A DNA stretch of 43,500 bases from Candidatus Bathyarchaeota archaeon (GCA_018396995.1 JAGTQB010000010.1:1-43500); one strand, 5' to 3'. Shown: positions 5,833 to 36,561, counted from the stretch's first letter. The notes: generated from the letters alone by a model not told the origin. Translations and numbers: made by a program.

Positions 5833-6735
5833 TTACTCAACCCATTCGGCTTTATATTCTGAGCTGAGGGAAATCACGAAGCAGCAGTATGGTTCATCAA
5901 CCCACCTAGTTATGACCGGAGTGTGCTGAAGCCCTTTGGGGCATATTACGACCGTAGGCTCATTAAAGATATGCCTTTCATGCTCAGGGCCCATATCAAA
6001 TTCGATCTCCGCCTTAAAGTGGTTTAAATCATAGGGGTTTAAGCCTAAGAAGATAAGCAGTTCATCAAATGGGTGTATATGGGCAAGCGATTTACCCCTT
6101 TCACGATGCCAGATGCCGCATCCACTATAGAATCCCCATGTGAAATTGAGCTCTAGCCCCTCTAAATCTCTACCAAAGAACCAGACTGCTTGATCAGCGT
6201 TTCCTGAGCCAACCCCCATCTTCGCTGGACTGATAACTCTACCCTTTAATGGCTTTATAAGGTGGCGGTACTTTTCCCCCTTAGTCTTAGGTGGCTTTGC
6301 ATCCCTAGGAAACCAGTTAACTTTATATTCAGGTCCCAGGAGGATGTGACAGCTTCTGAAGGGCTTTTCTACGCTTAAGGTTGTAAGTGGACCATGAGGA
6401 AGATTCTTCGGTATCACCACAACACAGGACTCATTTATTATATGCTCCTCTTGCTCCGGCCCTATCTCTATGGCAACCTCCGCCCCTAGGTAAGTGATGT
6501 CACGTGTATCTAGTCCAAGGAATAGCAGAACCTCATCGTAGGGATGCGTATGAGCACCAGCCCACGCATGCCAATATCCAGTTGCAACATGATCACCACC
6601 TCCAAAGTTTATGGGTAAGCCTTCAAGCGTCTTGCTATCCAGCCAAATCAATTGATTTGGAAGAGCTCCGCCAGGCCCTTTCTGTATCGTCAATCTTTTA
6701 ACTAGATGCCCATATTTTTTCTCCAATTCCATCAA
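5833..6735 (-). CDS. Double-cupin protein A
   Basis: A 300-aa protein made of two tandem cupin domains (about residues 5-145 and 155-300). Each contains an HxHPxDE(L/V)LxFLG block and a later xHxP block: His62, His64, Glu68 and His114 in domain 1, and AHIHPFDELL with QHTP in domain 2. These are the usual metal-ligand positions of cupins, so both domains probably bind metal. The closest visible relative is the neighbouring double cupin at 6925-7878. The function is unknown; binding or modification of a small acid or CoA-derived substrate of the neighbouring pathway would fit, but that is inference. Confidence 0.7.
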   Translation of the reverse strand: MMELEKKYGHLVKRLTIQKGPGGALPNQLIWLDSKTLEGLPINFGGGDHVATGYWHAWAGAHTHPYDEVLLFLGLDTRDITYLGAEVAIEIGPEQEEHIINESCVVVIPKNLPHGPLTTLSVEKPFRSCHILLGPEYKVNWFPRDAKPPKTKGEKYRHLIKPLKGRVISPAKMGVGSGNADQAVWFFGRDLEGLELNFTWGFYSGCGIWHRERGKSLAHIHPFDELLIFLGLNPYDLNHFKAEIEFDMGPEHERHIFNEPTVVICPKGLQHTPVITRWVDEPYCCFVISLSSEYKAEWVE

Positions 6736-6924: not shown

Positions 6925-7878
6925 CTAAACATCCCATCCAGTCTCCACATAGCCCGCTCGCGTATATCTTCCAGGACATATAAGCATAAATGCAAATGGT
7001 CTATCAACCCGCTGCGTAACAACTGGCGTATGTGGAATCCAGGGCCGCGGTATAGTTATTGCCACTGGCTTGTCAATAACATAAACTTCGCGCTCAGAAC
7101 CAAACCAGAATTCTATAGATGCTCCCAGATTATAAATGTTGTTGGGGTCTAGTCCTATAGCAATTAGCAGCTCCGGCTCTGGGTGGACATGCGCTAATTT
7201 AGTTGACATCCAAACGCCAGTAGTCTTAAAGAATTCCCATGAGAAGCTAATATTAACCCCTTCAAGATCCTCGGGATGCATCTGCACTATCTGATATGCT
7301 TCTCCAGGGCCTATTGCCCTAAGATCCATGACCCCCCTTTCATCTATAGTTATTGGACCCTCCTTGAGGTAGCCTTCATATGCCGTCTTGGAAGTTGTTA
7401 ATCTTTTAACTAGTTTAGAATATTTTGTACCCTGCATTCGGATATCACGTTTCTTAAACTCAGCTCTATATTCAGGCGCATCACAAAGGGCTACATGGAT
7501 TATTGGTCTCTTAATCTTACCTATTTTTATAGGACCATGAGGGACATTTTTTGGAACTATTAAAACTGATGGCTCAGTGATAACATGTTCCTCTCCCTCT
7601 TCCCCAATAACCGCGGATACCTCAGCCCCTAAATCCAATATATCTTCACTGTTTGTTCCAGCGAAGATTAGTAATTCATCGTAGGGATGCTTTACCGCCA
7701 ACTTCTCATCTATCGGGTGTAATGTTCTCGGCTCTATTATATACCCTATATAAAAGTGGCCCGGATATCCTTCGAGATCTTTGGATTCCATCCAGAAGAA
7801 TTTTTCCCGTGGTAATAGTTCTACTGGTACTCCACCTTCTCTTAACGGCTTTATAAGGTTCCTAAACTTATAGCCCAT
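6925..7878 (-). CDS. Double-cupin protein B
   Basis: A 317-aa paralogue of the gene at 5833-6735, again with two cupin repeats. Domain 2 keeps the HVHPEPELLIAIG and PHTP ligand blocks. Domain 1 reads AVKHPYDELLIFAG, with Lys where the first His of HxH is expected, although PHGP is retained. One of the four predicted metal sites in the pair of proteins is therefore probably lost or altered. The two genes are 189 bases apart on the same strand; I see no gene in the gap. No enzyme family can be assigned with confidence. Confidence 0.68.
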   Translation of the reverse strand: MGYKFRNLIKPLREGGVPVELLPREKFFWMESKDLEGYPGHFYIGYIIEPRTLHPIDEKLAVKHPYDELLIFAGTNSEDILDLGAEVSAVIGEEGEEHVITEPSVLIVPKNVPHGPIKIGKIKRPIIHVALCDAPEYRAEFKKRDIRMQGTKYSKLVKRLTTSKTAYEGYLKEGPITIDERGVMDLRAIGPGEAYQIVQMHPEDLEGVNISFSWEFFKTTGVWMSTKLAHVHPEPELLIAIGLDPNNIYNLGASIEFWFGSEREVYVIDKPVAITIPRPWIPHTPVVTQRVDRPFAFMLICPGRYTRAGYVETGWDV

Positions 7879-8323: not shown

Positions 8324-9292
8324 TTAGCGAAGTTCATAATAAAATATTCCATGTCTAATTTCTTTTGTTATAACTCCCCTCCTTTCTAAGTGGAGGAGGT
8401 GTGTAACTACTTCATTAATAATAAACCACTTTTGGATGGGCGATAGCTCACTCCATTCATTATAGGATATATTCCAGGTTATATGAGAAGCCAGTTGCCA
8501 CGCGGTTTTTGCACCACCTCTCAATGCACCAATTATCTCCTCTAGTCTCTTATTGTGATGTCTTTTAAGCTCCAGTATTCTTTCGTTTACGCCTTCGTGA
8601 AAATCTCCATGTCCGGGGAAAGCTCTATTGGCATTGAGGTAATAGATTTTTTCGAGACTATTAAGGTATTCACTCAATGAGTCATGATCCTTCCAGTAGA
8701 AGATGCTAGGCGTTATGTTAAAGAGTATATGGTCTCCAGAGAATAAAATCCTCCTCTTTTCGTCATACAGGCACATATGGCCTGGTGTATGACCTGGAGT
8801 CGATATCGCCCTCAACATATAGTCTCCATATTCAAGGATTTCTCCATCTTTAACAGGTTGGAAGTTAACTCCCTTCAAGTTAACGGATGAGCGAAATCTC
8901 ATAATTGCCTCTAGATCCCTCTGCGAAAAACCATTCATAATGAAAAATTTTAGTATATTAGGTTTAAAGAAACCATTCTGTAGAATTTTGGCGTCCTCAT
9001 CTCCTATGTATATGTTCTTTGTAAGTTTGCCTACAAGACCAATATGATCCACATGAAAGTGTGTTATGAAATAATCCGCCTCTCTATAGTCTACGCCTAT
9101 TTTATTCATGGCGCCTAAGAGGGCCGCATAGCATATTTCAGCATTGAAACCAGTATCTATCACTAATGGTTTCTTAGCCCTAATAATGTAGGAGTTAACC
9201 GCCCCAGGTGAGGGCCATGGTAATGGAACCTTCACCATGAAGATGTTTGGAAGTACTTCTATTATCAGCGCCAATGCGCCTCCGTAAAACAT
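8324..9292 (-). CDS. MBL-fold metallo-hydrolase
   Basis: A 322-aa metallo-beta-lactamase-fold hydrolase. The metal-binding signature HFHVDH lies near residue 77, with TPGHTPGH and SGDH motifs further on and FPGHGDFHEG carrying the last His. The C-terminal third looks like the winged-helix tail of LACTB2-type proteins. The substrate is unknown; thioester or RNA hydrolysis are both possible for this group. The start may be the ATG at 9292 or a TTG at 9274 that has a GGAGG just ahead. It is divergent from the oxidoreductase at 9334. Confidence 0.82.
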   Translation of the reverse strand: MFYGGALALIIEVLPNIFMVKVPLPWPSPGAVNSYIIRAKKPLVIDTGFNAEICYAALLGAMNKIGVDYREADYFITHFHVDHIGLVGKLTKNIYIGDEDAKILQNGFFKPNILKFFIMNGFSQRDLEAIMRFRSSVNLKGVNFQPVKDGEILEYGDYMLRAISTPGHTPGHMCLYDEKRRILFSGDHILFNITPSIFYWKDHDSLSEYLNSLEKIYYLNANRAFPGHGDFHEGVNERILELKRHHNKRLEEIIGALRGGAKTAWQLASHITWNISYNEWSELSPIQKWFIINEVVTHLLHLERRGVITKEIRHGIFYYELR

Positions 9293-10949: not shown

Positions 10950-11219
10950 TCAGCCCCCACCAGCCACAGAGGCGATTATGACTTCATCTAAATCCTTAAG
11001 ATTTGCGTTTAAGCCCCCCATGTAATGCGCATTTCTCCCATTAATTAAAGCAATTATGCCCTCCTTACCCACATCGAATCTTACACCTATCTCCACCTCA
11101 ATCTTATTCAGGAGGTCTCTTAAGGTTACTTCATCATGACTATCGAAGTAGATCCAGACATGTCGTTTATTAGTTGCATTATAGGGTCGCCCGATAAACT
11201 TAACGAGAATCTTTATCAT
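10950..11219 (-). CDS. ThiS/MoaD-type ubiquitin-like sulfur carrier protein
   Basis: An 89-aa beta-grasp protein. It opens with IKILVKFIGR, has the DEVTLRDLLNKIE helix region and LINGRN loop, and ends in AGGG, giving the flexible C-terminal Gly tail used for thiocarboxylation. It lies 35 bases behind the tungsten aldehyde oxidoreductase gene on the same strand. Such pairs are common because the carrier supplies sulfur for the tungsten-pterin cofactor (family knowledge). The native end is GGG rather than the usual GG, so trimming or a non-canonical tail is possible. Confidence 0.85.
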   Translation of the reverse strand: MIKILVKFIGRPYNATNKRHVWIYFDSHDEVTLRDLLNKIEVEIGVRFDVGKEGIIALINGRNAHYMGGLNANLKDLDEVIIASVAGGG

Positions 11220-11254: not shown

Positions 11255-13087
11255 TTAAGGTATCTCCAACTCGGCTAGCTTTTCTTTTGTCGGTATTCCT
11301 TGTTCATCCCATCCCCTAACTCTATAATAATCCTTGAGAAGCGGCTCTAGCTCGAATATTTGGCCTTTCGCTGGGTTCCTTGGATGCGGCTCCTTTAAGA
11401 ACCTCTCGGGTAGGATATCGTACTTGCCATCAATACCCTCCCTAACATTAAAGAGTCTCTCAAGGTTCCATATTCTCTCTCCAACCTTCCATAAGTACTT
11501 TGGATCCTTAAACTCTTCGATGCCTGTAGCCGAATACAATACTCTGCTATAAAAGACCGGATTTACTACGTCATGGTTTACAATTAGCTTGCAAAAGACA
11601 GCCGTTTCACAGACAGCCATCTCATCCTGTACGTACTTAGTTAACTCCGCCTTCCCTTCAATGGCGAGGGGGTCAGCCTTCTTAGGTACCCCAAGAATCT
11701 CAAACTTATTCCAGCTTATAGCGTGGCTTGCACCTATAGTGCCAGTCACGAGACCGAGACCCTGCCCCTTCATTGCACGAGGATCATAGGCAGGCATCTC
11801 TAACCCCTTAATATGCATTGCATATCTCTCGGAACCCCTCCCTATAATTTCAGCAGCTCTCCTAACCCCTTCAGCCAACAAGTTGCCAAGGTTCCCTATC
11901 CTCAAAGCAATGCGCCTCACAAGCTCAACGACTATCTCCGGCTTACCCCAATTCAATTCTAACCCATCCGTCTCGGTTTTATCTATAATGCTTTTCTCAC
12001 ATAGTTCTACAGCAAATGCTATAGCTACGCCAGTGGAAATAGTGTCTAGACCATATAGGTCACAAAGCATATTGGCGTATGTTATCGCTTCTATATTGTT
12101 GACTCCAACTATGCCCCCGAAAGACCATTCAGTTTCAAGTTCGGGAAAATCCCATGCTATGCCTCCATATGGGCCGTTGGTAATTTTGAAAATCTTCCCA
12201 CATTGCATTGCACATGCATAGCATCCTTTATGCCCAATTATATAGCTCTCTAAAATTTCTGGTCTGAACCTCTCTATTCCATCCCACTCCCTTTGCTGAA
12301 AGTTATATGTTGGAAAGTTCCCCATAAAGTACCATACATAGGTGCCCGTATTTGTCCCTAGTCTCCTAAAATCTGCTGGTGGTACGGCTGGCCACTCCCT
12401 ATAAGCTTTTATCTGCTCGTTCACAGCATCGCTTAAAGTTTGATCATCATAGATTTCAGGTCTTTTAGAACCCCTAACAACTATTGCCTTTAAGCCTTTT
12501 GAGCCCATCACAGCCCCTCCACCACCCCTACCTGCAGTCCTCCAATCGTCAGTTACGATAGCGGAGATTTTGACGAGCCTTTCGCCCGCAGGTCCTATCA
12601 TTATCATTTTTGCCCTCTTATCAGTCTCATCCAAGATAATATCTCTCGTAAATAGAGTGGTTAGACCCCATACTTTGCTTGCATCTCTAAACTCCACGTT
12701 ATCATCGTGTATCCATATGTAAGTTGGTTTTTCCGCTTTACCCTCCACTATTATAGCATCATAGCCCGCGAACTTGAGCTCAGCTCCAAAGTAGCCTCCT
12801 CCAACACTCCTACAGTATATGCCTGTTAAAGGAGACTTAAACTGAGCAACCCACCTGGAAGCCGATTGAACCTTTGTACCAGTCAGAGGCCCAACGGAAA
12901 CAACTATTTTATTTTCTGGACTTAGAGGATCTATATTGGCTGGCAACTCGTCCCATAATATTTTTATGCCAAAGCCCCGTCCACCAATAAAATGCTTGAT
13001 AAGACTATCTTTTAACGGTTCAACAGCATAACTCTTTTTTGACAAATTTATTCGAAGTATTTTACCCGCATATCCATAAAGTCGCAT
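11255..13087 (-). CDS. aor: Aldehyde:ferredoxin oxidoreductase family tungsten enzyme
   Basis: A 610-aa protein of the AOR family, normal length. The N-terminal domain begins GYAGKILRINLSKKSY, followed by GGRGFGIKILWDEL and the pterin-binding GGGGAVMGSKGLKAIVVRG. The [4Fe-4S] ligands are CYACAMQC, with the fourth Cys near the C-terminal third (CETAVFC). The reaction would be oxidation of an aldehyde to an acid with ferredoxin, or the reverse. The more distant family member BamB (class II benzoyl-CoA reductase) cannot be excluded from sequence reading alone. The start has GGTGAGGAT just ahead. It lies 138 bases downstream of the activase genes. Confidence 0.92.
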   Translation of the reverse strand: MRLYGYAGKILRINLSKKSYAVEPLKDSLIKHFIGGRGFGIKILWDELPANIDPLSPENKIVVSVGPLTGTKVQSASRWVAQFKSPLTGIYCRSVGGGYFGAELKFAGYDAIIVEGKAEKPTYIWIHDDNVEFRDASKVWGLTTLFTRDIILDETDKRAKMIMIGPAGERLVKISAIVTDDWRTAGRGGGGAVMGSKGLKAIVVRGSKRPEIYDDQTLSDAVNEQIKAYREWPAVPPADFRRLGTNTGTYVWYFMGNFPTYNFQQREWDGIERFRPEILESYIIGHKGCYACAMQCGKIFKITNGPYGGIAWDFPELETEWSFGGIVGVNNIEAITYANMLCDLYGLDTISTGVAIAFAVELCEKSIIDKTETDGLELNWGKPEIVVELVRRIALRIGNLGNLLAEGVRRAAEIIGRGSERYAMHIKGLEMPAYDPRAMKGQGLGLVTGTIGASHAISWNKFEILGVPKKADPLAIEGKAELTKYVQDEMAVCETAVFCKLIVNHDVVNPVFYSRVLYSATGIEEFKDPKYLWKVGERIWNLERLFNVREGIDGKYDILPERFLKEPHPRNPAKGQIFELEPLLKDYYRVRGWDEQGIPTKEKLAELEIP

Positions 13088-13225: not shown

Positions 13226-14026
13226 TTAACTTTTGCTAAAGGATTTTTTGCCTATTATAGCGGCGCCAAAAGCCGTTACTATTTGGGGTTGAGGTGGTAT
13301 AATTATCTCTCTTCCTAACTTCTGCTTCAGGCTCCTGATAAATCCGATATCATGTGCGCACCCACCGATGATTGCACACGGCTCCTTTAAGCCTATGCGG
13401 TTAATAAGCTCAATGATCTTCTCTGCCAGCGAATCATGTATCCCCGCAACAATATCCTCCTTCTGAAAGCCTTCAGCAATCATTGAGATTATTTCGGTTT
13501 CAATAAAGACAGCACACCTAGTTGTAAACTTGATGGGGTTCTTGGAGTTAATGGATAGAAGCCCCAAGTCATCTAGCCCTACACGCAGAACATTGGCGAG
13601 AACCCGTAAGATATACCCACTGCCTCCGGCACACTTCTCGGAAATAATGAAATTTGTCACGCGCCCACCTTCATCAACATGGAGAACCCTGCTAGTCTGC
13701 TCGCCCACATCAATAACAGTCCTCACGGAAGGAAATAATTTGTTTATCCCCCTTGCAGAGCAGACGATATCTGTAACCCTTTCATGGACAAAATCAACGC
13801 TAGGCGAGCCTTGGCCAGTGGCCACGATATATGACAGATCCTCCACGGTTAGACCTGCCTTATTCAGCAGCTCGCTCAAAAGTCTTTGGGCGGCTAACCT
13901 ATAACTAAAGCCTGAAGGCAATATATGATACGCTATTATCTCCTCTCCCCAGCCTATTATAACGCCCTTACTCGCGCTTACGCCTATATCAATACCTATG
14001 AAGAAGGTTTGACCCGATATCCCCAT
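13226..14026 (-). CDS. ASKHA-type ATPase/activase, BcrA/BcrD/HgdC family (second copy)
   Basis: A 266-aa ATPase of the acetate and sugar kinase/Hsp70 fold. It has the phosphate motif FIGIDIGVSASKG, the VIDVGEQ motif and IIGGCAHDIG. The two Cys that bridge a [4Fe-4S] cluster between subunits are visible in EKCAGGSG and TTRCAVF. It hydrolyses ATP to push an electron onto the partner reductase or dehydratase. It begins six bases after the other activase gene and shares its architecture but is clearly diverged, with VIDVGEQ for VIDIGGQ. Two different activases point to a heterodimer, as in BcrA/BcrD or BzdP/BzdQ. Confidence 0.88.
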   Translation of the reverse strand: MGISGQTFFIGIDIGVSASKGVIIGWGEEIIAYHILPSGFSYRLAAQRLLSELLNKAGLTVEDLSYIVATGQGSPSVDFVHERVTDIVCSARGINKLFPSVRTVIDVGEQTSRVLHVDEGGRVTNFIISEKCAGGSGYILRVLANVLRVGLDDLGLLSINSKNPIKFTTRCAVFIETEIISMIAEGFQKEDIVAGIHDSLAEKIIELINRIGLKEPCAIIGGCAHDIGFIRSLKQKLGREIIIPPQPQIVTAFGAAIIGKKSFSKS

Positions 14027-14032
14027 AGCCCC

Positions 14033-14875
14033 CTACCAGTAAAGCTCAACTTCCTCAAGGCGGCGGCAGCCTACTCTGATCTCTTCACCTCTACTCAGCG
14101 CCCCTTCAACAATGTTCTTTCCAATTATCGCTGCACCCAGAGCCCCAGTTATCAGCGGGTCCTCAGGGACGAGAACCTTGTATCCTAAGAGGTCTTCTAT
14201 AGCCTTGACGACTCCAATGTTTTTTGCGACCCCTCCAGTAACCACTATGTCAGGTTCAATACTGATTTGACTTACTAGCCTAACTATCCTATCGGCTATA
14301 GCATAATGCAAACCTGCAATAACATCCTCTATAGGAACGTTCTCAGAAATCTTTTCCATAACTTCGTGCCGTGCAAAAATTGTGCATTTACTGCTAATCT
14401 CGACTTTTCTCTTTGATTTTAGGGAGATTTCCCCCAAATCTTTAAGACTAAGGTTTAGTAAATCTGCCATGACTTCAAGAAACCTCCCCGTTCCAGCGGC
14501 ACATTTATCATTCATAATGAAGTTAACTAGTTTTCCATCTTTGATCTTAAGTCCCTTTAGATCTTGCCCACCAATGTCAATAGCAGTCCTTACAGATGGA
14601 AAGAGAGCGGATACGCCTTTAGCATGACATGTTAACTCCGAGATTTGGCGGTCAGCGAAGGGCACATTAAATCTCCCGTAACCCGTGGCTATAATATAAT
14701 TTATCTCGTTAAGGGATAGGTTCGCCTGGTTTAATGCCTCAATCATAATCTTATTGGCCAATTTGCGTTGTTCAGCCCTTGTGGGGACAATAACCTTCGA
14801 GATAATGTCTCCTTTAGAGTCTATTATCACGATTTTGGTGAAAGTTGAGCCGATGTCAACCCCAGCGAAATACAT
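14033..14875 (-). CDS. ASKHA-type ATPase/activase, BcrA/BcrD/HgdC family (first copy)
   Basis: A 280-aa activase in the canonical form: YFAGVDIGSTFTKIV at the start, TAIDIGGQDLKGLK, the cluster ligands DKCAAGTGRF and SSKCTIFARHE, and VVTGGVAKNIG. It is expected to donate electrons, coupled to ATP hydrolysis, to the two downstream-acting Cys-rich subunits encoded immediately upstream (gap 23 bases). Whether the partner acts on a benzoyl-CoA-like ring or a 2-hydroxyacyl-CoA is not decided by this gene. Confidence 0.92.
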   Translation of the reverse strand: MYFAGVDIGSTFTKIVIIDSKGDIISKVIVPTRAEQRKLANKIMIEALNQANLSLNEINYIIATGYGRFNVPFADRQISELTCHAKGVSALFPSVRTAIDIGGQDLKGLKIKDGKLVNFIMNDKCAAGTGRFLEVMADLLNLSLKDLGEISLKSKRKVEISSKCTIFARHEVMEKISENVPIEDVIAGLHYAIADRIVRLVSQISIEPDIVVTGGVAKNIGVVKAIEDLLGYKVLVPEDPLITGALGAAIIGKNIVEGALSRGEEIRVGCRRLEEVELYW

Positions 14876-14898
14876 TGAATCGCCTCATAAACATTGTC

Positions 14899-16089
14899 TC
14901 AAAGCTGAGAGAGCGTTTCTAGGAAAGCCTGAATCCTCGTCTTTAAGGGCGGTAATGTCTTCGCATCATATTCAGGCTCTATATAGATAGATGGTATACC
15001 AAGCATATCGAGGTAATCTTTAACCTGTGGGACCTCATATCCATGGACATCACAGCACCTTAAGCTATGAAGTATGACGCCATCAACTTTCCATTTACTG
15101 ATGTAGTCCTTCAGGTATCCGAATCTTTCCTCCAGATCCCTTTTATAGTCCTTCTTTAATGTTCCGTAGGACCCTATGTAGAGTCTTGGGCACTTAACCT
15201 CAATGAGATATCTTTTAGCTAAGTTCTCCATAAGATCACCTGTTGTTTTTACATGTGGATTATTGCTGTGTAACCAAAACTGTCTACTACAGACGCAGGT
15301 ATCGTCCACTACAACATATGCTCCATTCTCTTCAATTATCTGTAGGAGCGCCGGCGAATCTATTATGCTGCCCCATATCATGAGCCTTGCACCCCGCTTT
15401 TTCGGCCTACTTCCATATTCCTCAGCTTCCTCTAAAACCTCCTCTAAAATCCTGTTGCCTTCTTCAACTGGTAAGGCTTCAATGACGGAAATTATTTTAA
15501 GAGTGTCGGTGCCAGTTATAAGCGGCGGATCTTCTCGCTTAAGATCGTAGAGTCTTTTCACAAGCTCTCTCTGTCTATTATGTTTCTCGATAGCCTCCTT
15601 CAAGCAGTCCATTGAGAACTCTCTTCCCAAAAGTTTTTCAAGCCACCCCTTAAACTCCATTAGCTCATATTTAAAGAAGTTAATTGCCTCTTCAGATGTA
15701 GTTGTGGGTATCTCAAGAATGTAATGTACTGGCTTACTGACACAGCTCGTGTATACAAAACCGCCCTTATGCATGCAATCGCAAGAATGAGACCATATCA
15801 ATCCGTCAAGGAAATCAAACCTCCCCTTCATGCCTAAGTCAACGATGCTCCTCACATAGCTGCAGATAACTGGCGGCAATATTCTATTACCTTCAGTTAT
15901 AGGTTCATTCACATCTCCAAATACCCTGAAGGGAATCGTATCTGCGGCGGTTAGAATCTCCAGTGGAGGGTAAGCGCAAATATATCCTATTATTTTCCTA
16001 CCAGTCTTTCCCCTCAGCTCCTTAACTTTTCTAATAGGGTCTTTGTATACTTCATTCACAAATTTGAAACCCTTCATATTCTCACTCAT
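14899..16089 (-). CDS. 2-Hydroxyacyl-CoA dehydratase / benzoyl-CoA reductase family subunit (BcrC/HgdB-like)
   Basis: A 396-aa subunit. It has GYICAYPPLEILTAADTIPFR near residue 37, CSYVRSIVDLG, SHSCDCMHK and the C-terminal LHSLRCCDVHGYEVPQVKDYL block. The conserved Cys residues are those that hold a [4Fe-4S] cluster in this superfamily. It is four bases from the 451-aa partner, so both subunits should be made in equal amounts. The length matches BcrC (about 380 aa). It could equally be read as HgdB-like. Confidence 0.88.
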   Translation of the reverse strand: MSENMKGFKFVNEVYKDPIRKVKELRGKTGRKIIGYICAYPPLEILTAADTIPFRVFGDVNEPITEGNRILPPVICSYVRSIVDLGMKGRFDFLDGLIWSHSCDCMHKGGFVYTSCVSKPVHYILEIPTTTSEEAINFFKYELMEFKGWLEKLLGREFSMDCLKEAIEKHNRQRELVKRLYDLKREDPPLITGTDTLKIISVIEALPVEEGNRILEEVLEEAEEYGSRPKKRGARLMIWGSIIDSPALLQIIEENGAYVVVDDTCVCSRQFWLHSNNPHVKTTGDLMENLAKRYLIEVKCPRLYIGSYGTLKKDYKRDLEERFGYLKDYISKWKVDGVILHSLRCCDVHGYEVPQVKDYLDMLGIPSIYIEPEYDAKTLPPLKTRIQAFLETLSQL

Positions 16090-16093
16090 CTCT

Positions 16094-17440
16094 TCACCAG
16101 TCTAGTCCCATTTCCTTTCTTTCCTTTCTATAATATTGCATTGTTTCCTCAAATGCTTCCGCCCTCCTTAAGACATCATCAACACTAAAAACCCTATAAT
16201 CAACGATGTCACCCTCAACTGCGAGAGATGGAACCCTCCAAACCCTCATCAACATCTCCCCCATCTCATAGAGGTGTGATGTTGCAGAGCGGCAGGTCAG
16301 TAATGAATGGAGCATTGCACCGTCAACTTTATACTCCTTTGCCCAAACTATGAAGGGAGCTGAAATTGAGATACAATTTACCCCCATCTTCACAGATTCC
16401 CTAACATAATGTGTAAAGAAGTGGTAAAAGTATCGAACGATTCGCTCAAGGGGGTCCTCAATTTTCTCTAGGTTCTCCGCTGGCTTTGGGGGGTGGTACC
16501 CCCAGCTCTCGATTACAAAGTTCCAACCCCTCTCAGCAAGATCCTCGAAGAGAGCCAAGCTATGCCATGGTGGAAGTTCACTAAACATCAACCTATACTT
16601 TTCTTCTGGAACAGAGCATATGCCATTATCAACTCTATATTTGACCTCCTTGTATAGGTTCTGGTAAAGTTTAATGGATTCTTTTGGATCCCCGAGAAGA
16701 AAGAGTACTGAGGGCATCACGGACCAGTAATCTCTTGAATGCATAGGGCATGGAACAGCCTTTCTCAGCTCATTAACCTCAAAGCAAATCCTGTGTAGCT
16801 CAAGGGTGGCATTAACAAGCTCATCAAGCCTATTCCAATCCATCTTCTTACCGAGAAGCCCTTCGAGGAAACTTATAAATTCCCTTAGGTTCTTTACAAC
16901 AAACCTCACAAGACAATTAACGTAGTTTTCATCCATGACGTGATCTATTGTAGATGGCATCGGTGTATCGAGTATCCATATTGGTGTATCCATGTACCTG
17001 CCCAGTAACTGAAACCACTTGTATCTTGGATCACATATTGTTGAGGATGCCAAGAGCAGAACTGGCTTAGCCATTCCCCCCATCGGCGCTTCTGGGGGTA
17101 TTTCGCCTTTCAGCTCCCTCATCATTCTTATAACGTAGCCGAAGCAGTTCCTACTATATCCGCATAGGTGGGATGGTATTCCATCTGAGTCGGATAAACT
17201 TAAATATTTCTCCGCCACACCAAAAGCTGCGCAGACGGCACCATAATTCTCGGGATAAATTGGAACTACATCCATAGCTTTGAGAATAACGTCGCCGATC
17301 CACCAATTAAGCATACACCAAGCTACGGGCTTACCTCTACGCATAGCCTCAATAGATTCATTATAGGATTTGTCGATTATAGCCCTAAGAGGCTTAATGC
17401 TTTCCAGACGCCTAATAACCCTTTTTCTTTCACCGGACAC
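16094..17440 (-). CDS. 2-Hydroxyacyl-CoA dehydratase / benzoyl-CoA reductase family subunit (BcrB/HgdA-like)
   Basis: About 448 aa and the first gene of the four-gene set. Recognisable blocks are WCMLNWWIGDVILKAMDV, YPENYGAVCAAFG and LCGYSRNCFGY near the N-terminus, and LHSLLTCRSATSHLYE with VEGDIVDYR near the C-terminus. The Cys of YPENYGAVCAAF and of LCGYSRN are the probable cluster ligands. Size and the PEN-C-LCGYSRN pattern resemble BcrB/BzdO. I prefer the GTG at 17440, six bases after a GAAGGTG site; the in-frame GTG at 17449 is an alternative. An AT-rich promoter region lies at about 17480-17510. Confidence 0.86.
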   Translation of the reverse strand: MSGERKRVIRRLESIKPLRAIIDKSYNESIEAMRRGKPVAWCMLNWWIGDVILKAMDVVPIYPENYGAVCAAFGVAEKYLSLSDSDGIPSHLCGYSRNCFGYVIRMMRELKGEIPPEAPMGGMAKPVLLLASSTICDPRYKWFQLLGRYMDTPIWILDTPMPSTIDHVMDENYVNCLVRFVVKNLREFISFLEGLLGKKMDWNRLDELVNATLELHRICFEVNELRKAVPCPMHSRDYWSVMPSVLFLLGDPKESIKLYQNLYKEVKYRVDNGICSVPEEKYRLMFSELPPWHSLALFEDLAERGWNFVIESWGYHPPKPAENLEKIEDPLERIVRYFYHFFTHYVRESVKMGVNCISISAPFIVWAKEYKVDGAMLHSLLTCRSATSHLYEMGEMLMRVWRVPSLAVEGDIVDYRVFSVDDVLRRAEAFEETMQYYRKERKEMGLDW

Positions 17441-17449
17441 TTCATACAC

Positions 17450-18042: not shown

Positions 18043-18522
18043 ATGGTTAGGGTTTACCTGGAGCTTTCGACATTAATATCGTTAGCTAATCCGCTTGACC
18101 TGTTTCACACTCAAACCAGGAATTTTATGGATGAGATGAGAACTTTTGGTTTTGAGGCGGTATCCTGCAGGCAGGCTGTGGAGATGGATTTAGCGATTGG
18201 ACTCACTAGGAGGCCGTTGAGGGTGGGTGATGCACTTAGAATATTAGAGGTGATGGATGCCTATGAAATTAAACTTTTAAGTTTAAACTCGAGAGATTTA
18301 CTGTTGCTTGTCAACGAATATTTAAGGGAGACGTCTTTGAAGTTTGGTGACCTATTGCATTACGCTGGGGCAACACTCCTCAACGCTGATTACCTTTCAT
18401 CTTGGAATACGGATGATTTTAATGAGCGGACTGAAGAATCCATAAATAATGTGAATGTAAGAAGAGGTCTGAAAACTATAAAAGTGGGCACGCCAAATAT
18501 GATCTTGAGGTGGCTGCGGTGA
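18043..18522 (+). CDS. PIN-domain protein (VapC-like ribonuclease)
   Basis: A 159-aa PIN-domain protein. The first acidic position is Glu7 in VYLELSTL rather than the common Asp, as in the YLETS subgroup. Glu47/Asp49 fall in the middle, and the C-terminal block FGDLLHYAGATLLNADYLSSWNTDDFN supplies Asp103 and Asp124/125. PIN proteins cut RNA using these acids to hold metal. No antitoxin gene precedes it; instead a 54-aa gene overlaps its stop codon. It lies inside the presumed integrated element, so a toxin or addiction role is plausible but not shown. Confidence 0.75.
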   Translation: MVRVYLELSTLISLANPLDLFHTQTRNFMDEMRTFGFEAVSCRQAVEMDLAIGLTRRPLRVGDALRILEVMDAYEIKLLSLNSRDLLLLVNEYLRETSLKFGDLLHYAGATLLNADYLSSWNTDDFNERTEESINNVNVRRGLKTIKVGTPNMILRWLR

Positions 18523-18683
18523 GCAGCGTCGACATAGCGAAGCAGATACATGAGGACATAGATCAAATAATGAGAGGTCTAAGTGTAGAGGATCAGGAGA
18601 TAGTGCTCAGAGAAGCACAAAACATAGTTAAAAGCTTAAGAAGAATAGAGCAAATAGCAAGCAAGGCTAAAACCCAAGCTTAA
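18519..18683 (+). CDS. Small helical protein coupled to the PIN gene
   Basis: A 54-aa frame starting at a GTG whose last two bases lie in the TGA stop of the PIN gene (GTGA overlap), the usual arrangement for translational coupling. The sequence is wholly helical in character, rich in Ile, Glu, Gln and Lys (for example DIAKQIHEDIDQIM and QNIVKSLRRIEQIASKAK). I do not recognise a family. An antitoxin or accessory partner of the PIN protein is the obvious guess, though antitoxins usually come first. Confidence 0.55.
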   Translation: MSSVDIAKQIHEDIDQIMRGLSVEDQEIVLREAQNIVKSLRRIEQIASKAKTQA

Positions 18684-18901
18684 GCCCAGTTTACCCTATT
18701 CTTGCATATATCGAAGTTATCTGATTGAGGTTGCATAAATCTATACTAAAAAATTAAAAATTGCGGTATTCCCTCTTCATGTTCCTTTGTCTTCAACACC
18801 TCAACAGAGATTCGCTGGTCAGGGATCTTTGCCTAGACGCGAAAGAAGGCGCATAGCTATGGAGTTTTTAAACGGTTTTGTGATTTGACTCGAAATCGGG
18901 G

Positions 18902-19021
18902 CTATGGCCAAAGACTATTAGGGTTTATTATAGCTGTAATCACCAGTTCATCAATGAGTTTACTGTATCTTTTAGGCTTAGATATTTTCCGCCGCTCGAT
19001 GACCTCACGTAGGTTCAGCAT
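18902..19021 (-). CDS. Possible 39-aa protein downstream of the integrase
   Basis: A frame of 39 codons starting 24 bases after the integrase stop, on the same strand. It is basic at the N-terminus (MLNLREVIERRKISKPKRYS). No family recognised and no clear ribosome site. It may be a real small gene of the element or chance. The remaining bases between 18684 and 19045 show nothing further. Confidence 0.3.
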   Translation of the reverse strand: MLNLREVIERRKISKPKRYSKLIDELVITAIINPNSLWP

Positions 19022-19045
19022 TATTTTTCCGCTTAAAATCCTTAT

Positions 19046-20192
19046 CTAAACGATCGTAAGCCTTGATGAGTGTCTGAAGGACCCGCGTTTCTCCTCCTCA
19101 ACCTTAAGCGCTAGACTTTTATCCAGTATGTAGCCGCAGAACTCACATCTGGTATTGTTCGGCGGGTTCATGCTTCCACATCTTGGGCATTGTGTTGGCT
19201 TTAGTATTCCATCAGTCCGCTTATCTTCTTTAAGTCCATGAATCTCTAGAACAGTTTCTTCTAAGTCTCTTGCTGAGAAGTGCACATAGCGCCTAGCCAT
19301 CTTAGAGCCGTGAACCCAGCCTGCATAAAGCTCAAGCTTACTCTCTGTCAACACCTTTGCTAGGGCTGTTAGGCATTGTTAGGCATGAGTGCCTAAAAAG
19401 GTATGGCCAAACATCCCTCCTCAACTCAGCCCTCCTCGCTATCCTCTTGACGATTAGGCGGAAGTGCCTGTAGCTCAGCGGCCTGCCAACGTAGTTTGTT
19501 GCAAGCGAGCACCATAATGGTGCTTCCGGATCATCCCTGCGCGGGTGGACCCTAAGCCAATCTAGCAGCGGCATATATGATGCGACTAGAGGTATCCTCT
19601 TTATGCCAGTCTTACCATTAACGGTGATTAGGCAGTAGTCCCTCTTGAACTCAACGCTGCTCGTCTTCATGCTCAGCAGCTCGCCGGGCCTCAAGGCGCC
19701 CTCAAACAACACGTGGAGCATGGCCCTGTCACGCGGATTATCAGCCGCCTCCACCATCGCCCTAAACTCATCCTCGCCTATGAGGGCTTCAGGCGTAACC
19801 CGGCTGTCCCTCTCCTTAACGTTTAGCTTTATCCAGCTGACCTCAGGCGGCATCGGCGCATCTTTGTCGCACCTGCCAACCTTAGCATACTGAATCAGCT
19901 TACGCAGAACCAGCTTCTTGTCATGCTTAGTCCACTCCCTATAAGGCTGCCTGTTAATCCAGGCTACAACGCGCTCAACATCACGCCTAGTCGCCTCTTC
20001 CAGGTTGAAGTCTATGGCGCGTAGGAGGGCTGGGAGGTGGCCTGCAACCTTACTCAACCTAGCAATAGAAAGCCCAAGGCTTGCCAGGTGATCCAGGAAG
20101 CGGAGCGCGATCTCGCCATTATGCCCGAATCCAGCGATAATCCGCCTATAGCGCTCAAGCCTCTCCTCATAATCATAAATCTCGCCCTTCAC
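19046..20192 (-). pseudogene. int: Tyrosine recombinase/integrase, frameshifted by a 10-bp tandem duplication
   Basis: The N-terminal part (GTG at 20192) has a SAM-like core-binding domain and catalytic Arg168 (ALRPGELL), Lys194 (VNGKTG) and Arg267 in YLFRHSCLT, with Tyr264 where HxxR proteins have His. It then runs into twelve foreign residues and a stop at 19338. Removing one copy of the direct repeat TGTTAGGCAT (19367-19376, 19377-19386) joins it exactly to a second frame beginning at 19354. That frame carries GWVHGSKMARRYVHFSARDLEE, including the nucleophilic Tyr, and a C-terminal zinc ribbon (CPRC...CEFC). The repaired protein would be about 379 aa. The gene begins 58 bases from the tRNA-Met 3' end, as expected for a tRNA-targeting archaeal integrase. 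Confidence 0.9.
19367..19386. repeat. Perfect 10-bp tandem duplication inside the integrase gene
   Basis: Two adjacent copies of TGTTAGGCAT. Ten is not a multiple of three, so the duplication alone breaks the reading frame. Deleting one copy restores the integrase through its catalytic Tyr. Confidence 0.95.
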
Positions 20193-36469: not shown

Positions 36470-36561
36470 AGCCCGGTGGTGTAGCGGACAAGCATAGCGG
36501 GCTTTGGAGGAGGAGCCGGAGAGACCCGCTGACGGGAGTTCGAATCTCCCCCGGGCTACCA
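36470..36561 (+). tRNA. tRNA-Gln (UUG) with 16-nt intron
   Basis: Acceptor AGCCCGG pairs with CCGGGCU. The T-arm is GGGAG-UUCGAAU-CUCCC, and A73 and CCA are encoded. Anticodon stem GCGGG/CCCGC encloses CU-UUG-G, an insert of about 16 nt after position 37, and A38. The mature length is 76. A TATA-like AAATATTATA (about 36447-36456) lies just upstream. Confidence 0.9.

What the first reader, a model, noticed from the sequence alone, without database searches (positions are those of the whole stretch)
13226..17440. Four-gene set with the composition of class I benzoyl-CoA reductase
Two different ASKHA activases (266 and 280 aa, each with both cluster Cys) lie with two Cys-rich subunits of about 448 and 396 aa in a tight operon. 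2-Hydroxyacyl-CoA dehydratases normally need only one homodimeric activase. The set matches BcrABCD/BzdNOPQ in number and size and would be an archaeal ring-reducing or related enzyme.
Basis: partly seen in the sequence, partly recalled or inferred. Interest (0 to 1): 0.6.

Follow-up and report, generated by a model that had tools for sequence, protein, structure and literature searches.

The report
Unassigned two-activase benzoyl-CoA-reductase-like enzyme
An archaeon carries a complete four-gene set built like the ATP-driven enzyme that breaks aromatic rings without oxygen, but all four genes belong to a separate, uncharacterised branch of that family and the genome lacks the ring-opening genes, so it is probably a related reductase with another, unknown substrate.

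Summary
In detail: four adjacent minus-strand genes (13226-17449; gaps 4, 23 and 6 nt) encode two different activases (266 and 280 aa, both cluster cysteines in each) and two HGD-D subunits (396 and 451 aa). Architecturally the set is benzoyl-CoA-reductase-like. The beta subunit keeps all six cysteines that bind the [8Fe-9S] double cubane in BzdN. The alpha subunit keeps the three active-site cluster cysteines. The activase pair is asymmetric (GGQD in one, degenerate in the other), as in all 22 two-activase sets I compared and none of 15 single activases. But it is not Bzd or Mbd. All four subunits fall far below the equivalog cut-offs. The catalytic subunits form a separate, well-supported clade with bacterial sets. 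Placing alpha inside Bzd or inside HAD is rejected. The active-site histidine of BzdO is an invariant arginine (CD[PA]R[YF]KW). Genuine bzd clusters with ring-cleavage genes exist in same-order archaea; the window's genome and six other genomes carrying the clade have no 6-oxocyclohexene-CoA hydrolase. Best reading: an ATP-dependent, double-cubane CoA-ester reductase of unknown, probably non-benzoyl substrate. Main rival: a two-activase 2-hydroxyacyl-CoA dehydratase, favoured by a 2-hydroxyacyl-CoA lyase beside one relative. New variant of a known kind.

The parts
16094..17449 (-). P4, catalytic alpha-like subunit (451 aa; GTG start). Predicted aqua-[4Fe-4S] ligands C96, C139, C386; E67 conserved; R142 in place of the BzdO catalytic His131; clade motif CD[PA]R[YF]KW
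14899..16089 (-). P3, beta-like electron-storage subunit (396 aa); six predicted [8Fe-9S] ligands C38, C76, C103, C265, C300, C346, with R55, R269, H349 also conserved with BzdN
14033..14875 (-). P2, canonical activase subunit (280 aa; TGYGR, GGQD, NDKCAAGTGRFL), Q-type
13226..14026 (-). P1, degenerate activase subunit (266 aa; TGQGS, GEQT, SEKCAGGSG), P-type partner
11255..13087 (-). Tungsten aldehyde:ferredoxin oxidoreductase, true AOR type (closest 9mqx, 1aor; BamB far weaker), 138 nt downstream of P1; candidate electron donor or consumer
10950..11219 (-). MoaD/ThiS-like protein directly downstream of AOR
8324..9292 (-). MBL-fold hydrolase; 37% identical to one lying about 5 kb from the P4 homologue in L038 (shared neighbour)

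Best explanation
[quoted passage not shown] P1 and P2 form an obligate asymmetric heterodimer with one bridging [4Fe-4S] cluster; it takes electrons from ferredoxin and hydrolyses ATP to push them to very low potential. The electrons collect on the [8Fe-9S] double cubane of P3 and pass to the water-bearing [4Fe-4S] cluster of P4, where a CoA thioester is reduced, probably by two electrons. Shown here: gene content, cluster ligands, activase asymmetry, separate clade, arginine signature, absence of the ring-cleavage hydrolase. Inferred: oligomer, electron path, that the net reaction is a reduction, that the substrate is a CoA ester other than benzoyl-CoA, and that the neighbouring tungsten AOR shares its ferredoxin pool. 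The substrate is not identified.
For: All six BzdN double-cubane cysteines are present in P3. HadC and MbdN lack two or more of them. The P3 model (pLDDT 86) fits BzdN best (TM 0.87). P4 keeps the three cluster cysteines and the catalytic glutamate. In 22 of 22 two-activase sets exactly one activase has lost the GGQD motif; 15 of 15 single activases keep it; the window fits the first pattern. In Bzd and Mbd this goes with stoichiometric reductases. Fuchs et al. (PMC11971306) read the double cubane as storing at least two electrons and state it is abolished in dehydratases. All four subunits trace to the same group of bacterial sets, e.g. L125 with the same gene order and 48/43/62/48% identity. 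The clade is distinct: UFBoot 100/SH-aLRT 98 (alpha), 100/99 (beta); P4 inside Bzd or Had rejected.
Against: By sequence P4 scores slightly higher to HadB than to BzdO (116 vs 79 bits; 87 vs 63). A relative, L043, sits beside a 2-hydroxyacyl-CoA lyase above its equivalog cut-off, which favours a 2-hydroxyacyl-CoA substrate. Two close relatives (L038, L123) have lost three double-cubane cysteines while keeping the rest, so the double cubane is not essential to the clade's function. No member has been tested biochemically, and no acyl-CoA pathway in the window names a substrate.
Confidence: 0.52

Rival explanations
1. A two-activase 2-hydroxyacyl-CoA dehydratase: P4/P3 eliminate water from an (R)-2-hydroxyacyl-CoA by a ketyl-radical mechanism, the electron being recycled, for example as the reductive branch of amino-acid fermentation.
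For: P4 is marginally nearest HadB by profile and phmmer. A 2-hydroxyacyl-CoA lyase (NF058623, 775 vs cut-off 600) sits beside clade member L043, and a lyase/oxalyl-CoA-decarboxylase-like ThDP enzyme lies upstream of the P4 homologue in L038. The host encodes an Opp-type oligopeptide transporter (window 1-5 kb), type III CoA-transferase and FadB-like proteins.
Against: Alpha tree: P4 inside Had (p-AU 4.5e-4) and the window clade as sister to Had (5.6e-4) are rejected. HAD beta subunits lack the double-cubane cysteines that P3 has. Known dehydratases use one homodimeric activase with GGQD; here there are two and one is degenerate. The window genome has no lyase homologue beyond acetolactate synthase and an unrelated ThDP protein.
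Confidence: 0.27
2. A true benzoyl-CoA (or substituted benzoyl-CoA) reductase of a divergent archaeal type.
For: Same subunit number, sizes, double cubane and asymmetric activases. A sister relation of the clade to Bzd is not rejected. One FadD-like acyl-CoA ligase exists in the genome.
Against: His131 of BzdO is Arg in all 11 clade members. No Oah above cut-off in the window's genome or in six other clade-bearing genomes, while two same-order archaea with genuine bzd sets score over it. Only one crotonase domain in the genome. The best ligase matches long-chain acyl-CoA ligases, not benzoate-CoA ligase above cut-off. All subunits far below Bcr/Bzd equivalog cut-offs.
Confidence: 0.12
3. A DCCP-like reductase of small molecules without a CoA substrate (acetylene, azide, hydrazine or a physiological counterpart).
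For: P3's best NCBIfam profile is the double-cubane anaerobic reductase (200 bits, cut-off 350), and the six ligands are shared with DCCP.
Against: DCCPs are homodimers with a single activase; here there is a distinct alpha subunit with an open three-cysteine cluster site and two activases. P3 does not branch with DCCP. Clade relatives lie near CoA ligases, thiolase, acyl-CoA dehydrogenase and hydratase genes.
Confidence: 0.06

Closest known systems
BZD-type class I benzoyl-CoA reductase (BzdNOPQ, Aromatoleum sp. CIB; PDB 8s02)
   Same: Four genes of matching size; double-cubane cysteines in the N-type subunit; three-cysteine cluster site and Glu in the O-type subunit; asymmetric P/Q activases.
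   Different: 24-45% identical to archaeal bzd subunits; outside the Bzd clade in every tree; Arg instead of catalytic His131; no ring-cleavage hydrolase in the genome.
3-Methylbenzoyl-CoA reductase (MbdONQP, Thauera chlorobenzoica; PDB 9gai)
   Same: Heterotetramer with two different activases, one with degenerate GGQD.
   Different: MbdN lacks three of the double-cubane cysteines; MbdO has CNTF, not CDPR; only distant similarity (64-66 bits for the catalytic subunits).
(R)-2-Hydroxyisocaproyl-CoA dehydratase (HadBC/HadI, Clostridioides difficile; PDB 3o3m)
   Same: Fold, three-cysteine cluster site and YPEN motif in the alpha subunit; P4's best single phmmer hit.
   Different: One homodimeric activase; HadC lacks two double-cubane ligands; P4 inside Had rejected (p-AU 4.5e-4).
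Double-cubane cluster protein DCCP/DCCP-R (PDB 7yyl; E. coli YjiM/YjiL)
   Same: Six cysteine ligands of the [8Fe-9S] cluster in P3.
   Different: DCCP is a single-gene homodimer with one activase and no separate alpha subunit.

Membership tests
Class I benzoyl-CoA reductase, BZD type | Four subunits: two HGD-D proteins plus two different activases | tested here: met
Class I benzoyl-CoA reductase, BZD type | Six [8Fe-9S] ligand cysteines in the N subunit | tested here: met
   P3 C38, C76, C103, C265, C300, C346
Class I benzoyl-CoA reductase, BZD type | Active-site cluster cysteines, Glu65 and His131 in the O subunit | tested here: not met
   Cysteines and Glu present; His131 is Arg142
Class I benzoyl-CoA reductase, BZD type | Scores above the BzdN/O/Q equivalog cut-offs | tested here: not met
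   153/454, 79/449, 185/380 bits; positive control L044: BzdO 545/449 and BzdQ 384/380 pass, BzdN 445/454 falls just short
Class I benzoyl-CoA reductase, BZD type | Branches with BzdN/BzdO | tested here: not met
   P4 inside Bzd rejected, p-AU 7e-63; P3 outside the Bzd clade
Class I benzoyl-CoA reductase, any type | Ring-cleavage pathway in the genome (Oah, dienoyl-CoA hydratase) | tested here: not met
   genome 98.5% complete
Class I benzoyl-CoA reductase, BCR type | Branches with BcrABCD | tested here: inconclusive
   No Bcr reference in the trees; only profile scores, 64-183 bits against cut-offs of 313-578
2-Hydroxyacyl-CoA dehydratase (Had/Hgd) | Catalytic subunits branch inside the dehydratases | tested here: not met
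   p-AU 4.5e-4 for P4 inside Had
2-Hydroxyacyl-CoA dehydratase (Had/Hgd) | Single homodimeric activase with GGQD | tested here: not met
   Two activases, one GEQT
2-Hydroxyacyl-CoA dehydratase (Had/Hgd) | Dehydration with catalytic ATP | not testable with these tools
   needs enzymology
DCCP | Single HGD-D gene with double-cubane ligands and one activase | tested here: not met

The most novel reading that the evidence does not exclude
A further kind of ATP-driven 'Birch-type' reductase, besides Bcr, Bzd and Mbd: a heterotetrameric double-cubane enzyme with an arginine at the catalytic cluster that reduces a CoA ester other than benzoyl-CoA. It is spread among Deltaproteobacteria, Syntrophobacterales and Chloroflexi and was acquired by one archaeal lineage.
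Probability: 0.42. Interest if true: 0.72.

Novelty: new variant of a known kind. Interest (0 to 1): 0.5.

Why it matters
Only a handful of reactions are known to be driven at about -1 V by ATP-dependent iron-sulfur activases, and the double cubane has one enzyme of defined function (BzdNO). A coherent four-gene clade with the double cubane, an asymmetric activase pair and a new active-site arginine says that this chemistry has at least one more substrate class, and gives a defined, expressible target to find it. It also warns that four-gene 'BCR-like' sets in archaeal genomes cannot be read as benzoate degradation: the same archaeal order holds genuine bzd clusters and this different enzyme.

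Tried and rejected
(1) BamB-like class II BCR for the neighbouring AOR: rejected; it is a true AOR (483 bits to 9mqx, 458 to 1aor, 208 to BamB). (2) Contamination: GC matches the window and the contig is archaeal. (3) Recent single-species acquisition: left open. Same-genus genomes show no P4, but the one with an 89% AOR orthologue (G008) has its contig ending 21 nt upstream of that AOR, so absence there is not shown. (4) 2-Hydroxyacyl-CoA lyase partner in the window's genome: its two ThDP enzymes are acetolactate synthase in an ilv/leu operon and an unrelated protein. (5) Foldseek with the P4 model does not discriminate between HadB, MbdO and BzdO. (6) phmmer hits of P1 to TAL effector chains are repeat artefacts. 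(7) Literature searches found no description of this clade.

Full report
Observation. The window holds four adjacent minus-strand genes in the order P4 (16094-17449, 451 aa), P3 (14899-16089, 396 aa), P2 (14033-14875, 280 aa) and P1 (13226-14026, 266 aa), with gaps of 4, 23 and 6 nt. P1 and P2 are BcrAD_BadFG activases; P3 and P4 are HGD-D proteins. They are the only members of either family in the 1.46-Mb genome, which is 98.5% complete. A true-type tungsten AOR and a MoaD-like gene follow on the same strand.

Cluster ligands. The BzdNO structure paper (PMC11971306) names the [8Fe-9S] ligands of BzdN as C36, C73, C100, C263, C293 and C327, and the active-site ligands of BzdO as C95, C128 and C380 with E65 and H131. 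In alignments P3 has all six cysteines (C38, C76, C103, C265, C300, C346) plus R55, R269 and H349. HadC keeps four of the six and MbdN three. P4 has C96, C139, C386 and E67, but R142 in place of H131. An AlphaFold model of P3 (pLDDT 86) matches BzdN best (TM 0.87). The P4 model (pLDDT 80) matches HadB, MbdO and BzdO about equally.

Activase asymmetry. Across the loci fetched, each of 15 single activases keeps the GGQD motif. In each of 22 two-activase sets exactly one partner keeps it and the other has lost it. Many of these are related, so the Fisher value (1e-10) is not a true probability; but the pattern recurs in Bzd, Mbd, the window's clade and three other lineages. P2 has GGQD and P1 has GEQT, so the pair looks like an obligate heterodimer, as in known ring reductases, and not like two alternative homodimeric activases.

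Phylogeny. References for BzdN/O, MbdN/O/P/Q, HadB/C/I, HgdC and DCCP were taken from alignments printed by the PDB search; BzdO and MbdO lack a middle stretch. Alpha and beta trees put P4 and P3 in one clade with bacterial sets from Deltaproteobacteria, Syntrophobacterales, Syntrophaceae and, for alpha, Chloroflexi (UFBoot/SH-aLRT 100/98 and 100/99). The activases group with the activases of the same sets. Forcing P4 inside Bzd (p-AU 7e-63), P4 inside Had (4.5e-4) or the clade beside Had (5.6e-4) is rejected; a sister relation to Bzd is neither supported nor rejected. Eleven of eleven clade members have CD[PA]R[YF]KW at the active-site cysteine; Bzd has CCSH, Had CN(Q/M/C), Mbd CNTF, and a further archaeal group CDTH or close variants. 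Nearest complete sets with the same gene order: L125 (Syntrophobacterales; P4/P3/P2/P1 48/43/62/48%) and L123 (52/43/60/48%).

Positive control. Same-order archaea carry genuine bzd sets found by the same searches. In L044, BzdO scores 545 (cut-off 449) and BzdQ 384 (380); BzdN at 445 falls just under its cut-off of 454. [quoted passage not shown] The window's set scores 153/454, 79/449 and 185/380 on BzdN/O/Q, and its genome has no such hydrolase (best 45 bits, in a FadB-like fusion), one crotonase domain, one FadD-like ligase and one acetate-CoA ligase. The six other clade-bearing genomes searched also lack the hydrolase above cut-off.

Context of relatives. L039 has an acyl-CoA ligase directly upstream of its set. 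L038 has acyl-CoA dehydrogenase, ThDP enzyme, thiolase, 3-hydroxyacyl-CoA dehydrogenase and hydratase genes around its P4 and P3. L043 has a 2-hydroxyacyl-CoA lyase above its cut-off. The window's MBL-fold neighbour (8324-9292) is 37% identical to one in L038. These contexts point to CoA-ester metabolism; the lyase favours the dehydratase rival, the double cubane and activase pair the reductase.

Distribution. Among 100 relatives and 398 genomes of the phylum no other archaeon reached the window clade's score (next best 3e-105 against 1e-204). One same-genus genome has an 89% AOR orthologue whose contig ends just upstream, so absence there is unproved. An integrase gene lies about 1.9 kb upstream of P4. 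The bacterial sister sets suggest horizontal transfer; direction and age are inferred only.

Verdict. It works like a class I BCR in its electron-pump anatomy (shown by sequence, not by experiment), is not a member of Bzd, Mbd or HAD as tested (Bcr type only by profile scores), and most likely reduces a CoA ester other than benzoyl-CoA.

Noticed in passing
L044-L063 (same-order archaeal genomes, e.g. G033:C25, G063:C1, G090:C22): Genuine bzd clusters with Oah and 6-hydroxycyclohexene-CoA dehydrogenase genes; in several a divergent AOR plus MoaD-like pair lies upstream, and a second alpha/beta pair (CDTH motif, four to six of the double-cubane cysteines) without its own activases lies about 10-18 kb away.
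   Followed up: partly
window 5833-6735 and 6925-7878; L064:3338-6364: Family of roughly 300-aa, probably double-cupin proteins with no Pfam or NCBIfam match; two lie near the set and three more near the genome's only non-acetate acyl-CoA ligase, which may link the two loci.
   Followed up: partly
L071 (Rhizobium leguminosarum plasmid NZ_CP030763): Two HGD-D proteins plus two activases (one degenerate) with a substrate-binding protein, rhodaneses and a sulfate permease: a possible sulfur-linked two-activase set.
   Followed up: no
L068, L070, L072, L077 (Azoarcus, Rhodobacteraceae, Sphingopyxis and Rhodococcus plasmids): HGD-D pairs with one activase and a CSTG active-site motif, several in genera usually regarded as aerobic; a distinct clade.
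   Followed up: no
G000 (whole genome): Eight AOR-family proteins at E below 1e-100 in a 1.46-Mb genome.
   Followed up: no
window 18043-20192: A phage-integrase family gene, a zinc-ribbon ORF and a 159-aa ORF without Pfam match lie just upstream of the set.
   Followed up: partly
L038, L123: The beta subunits have lost three of six double-cubane cysteines while keeping the clade's alpha subunit (and, in L123, both activases): a secondary loss of the double cubane within the clade.
   Followed up: yes
window 36470-36561: ARAGORN calls a tRNA with an odd four-base anticodon (gagg).
   Followed up: no
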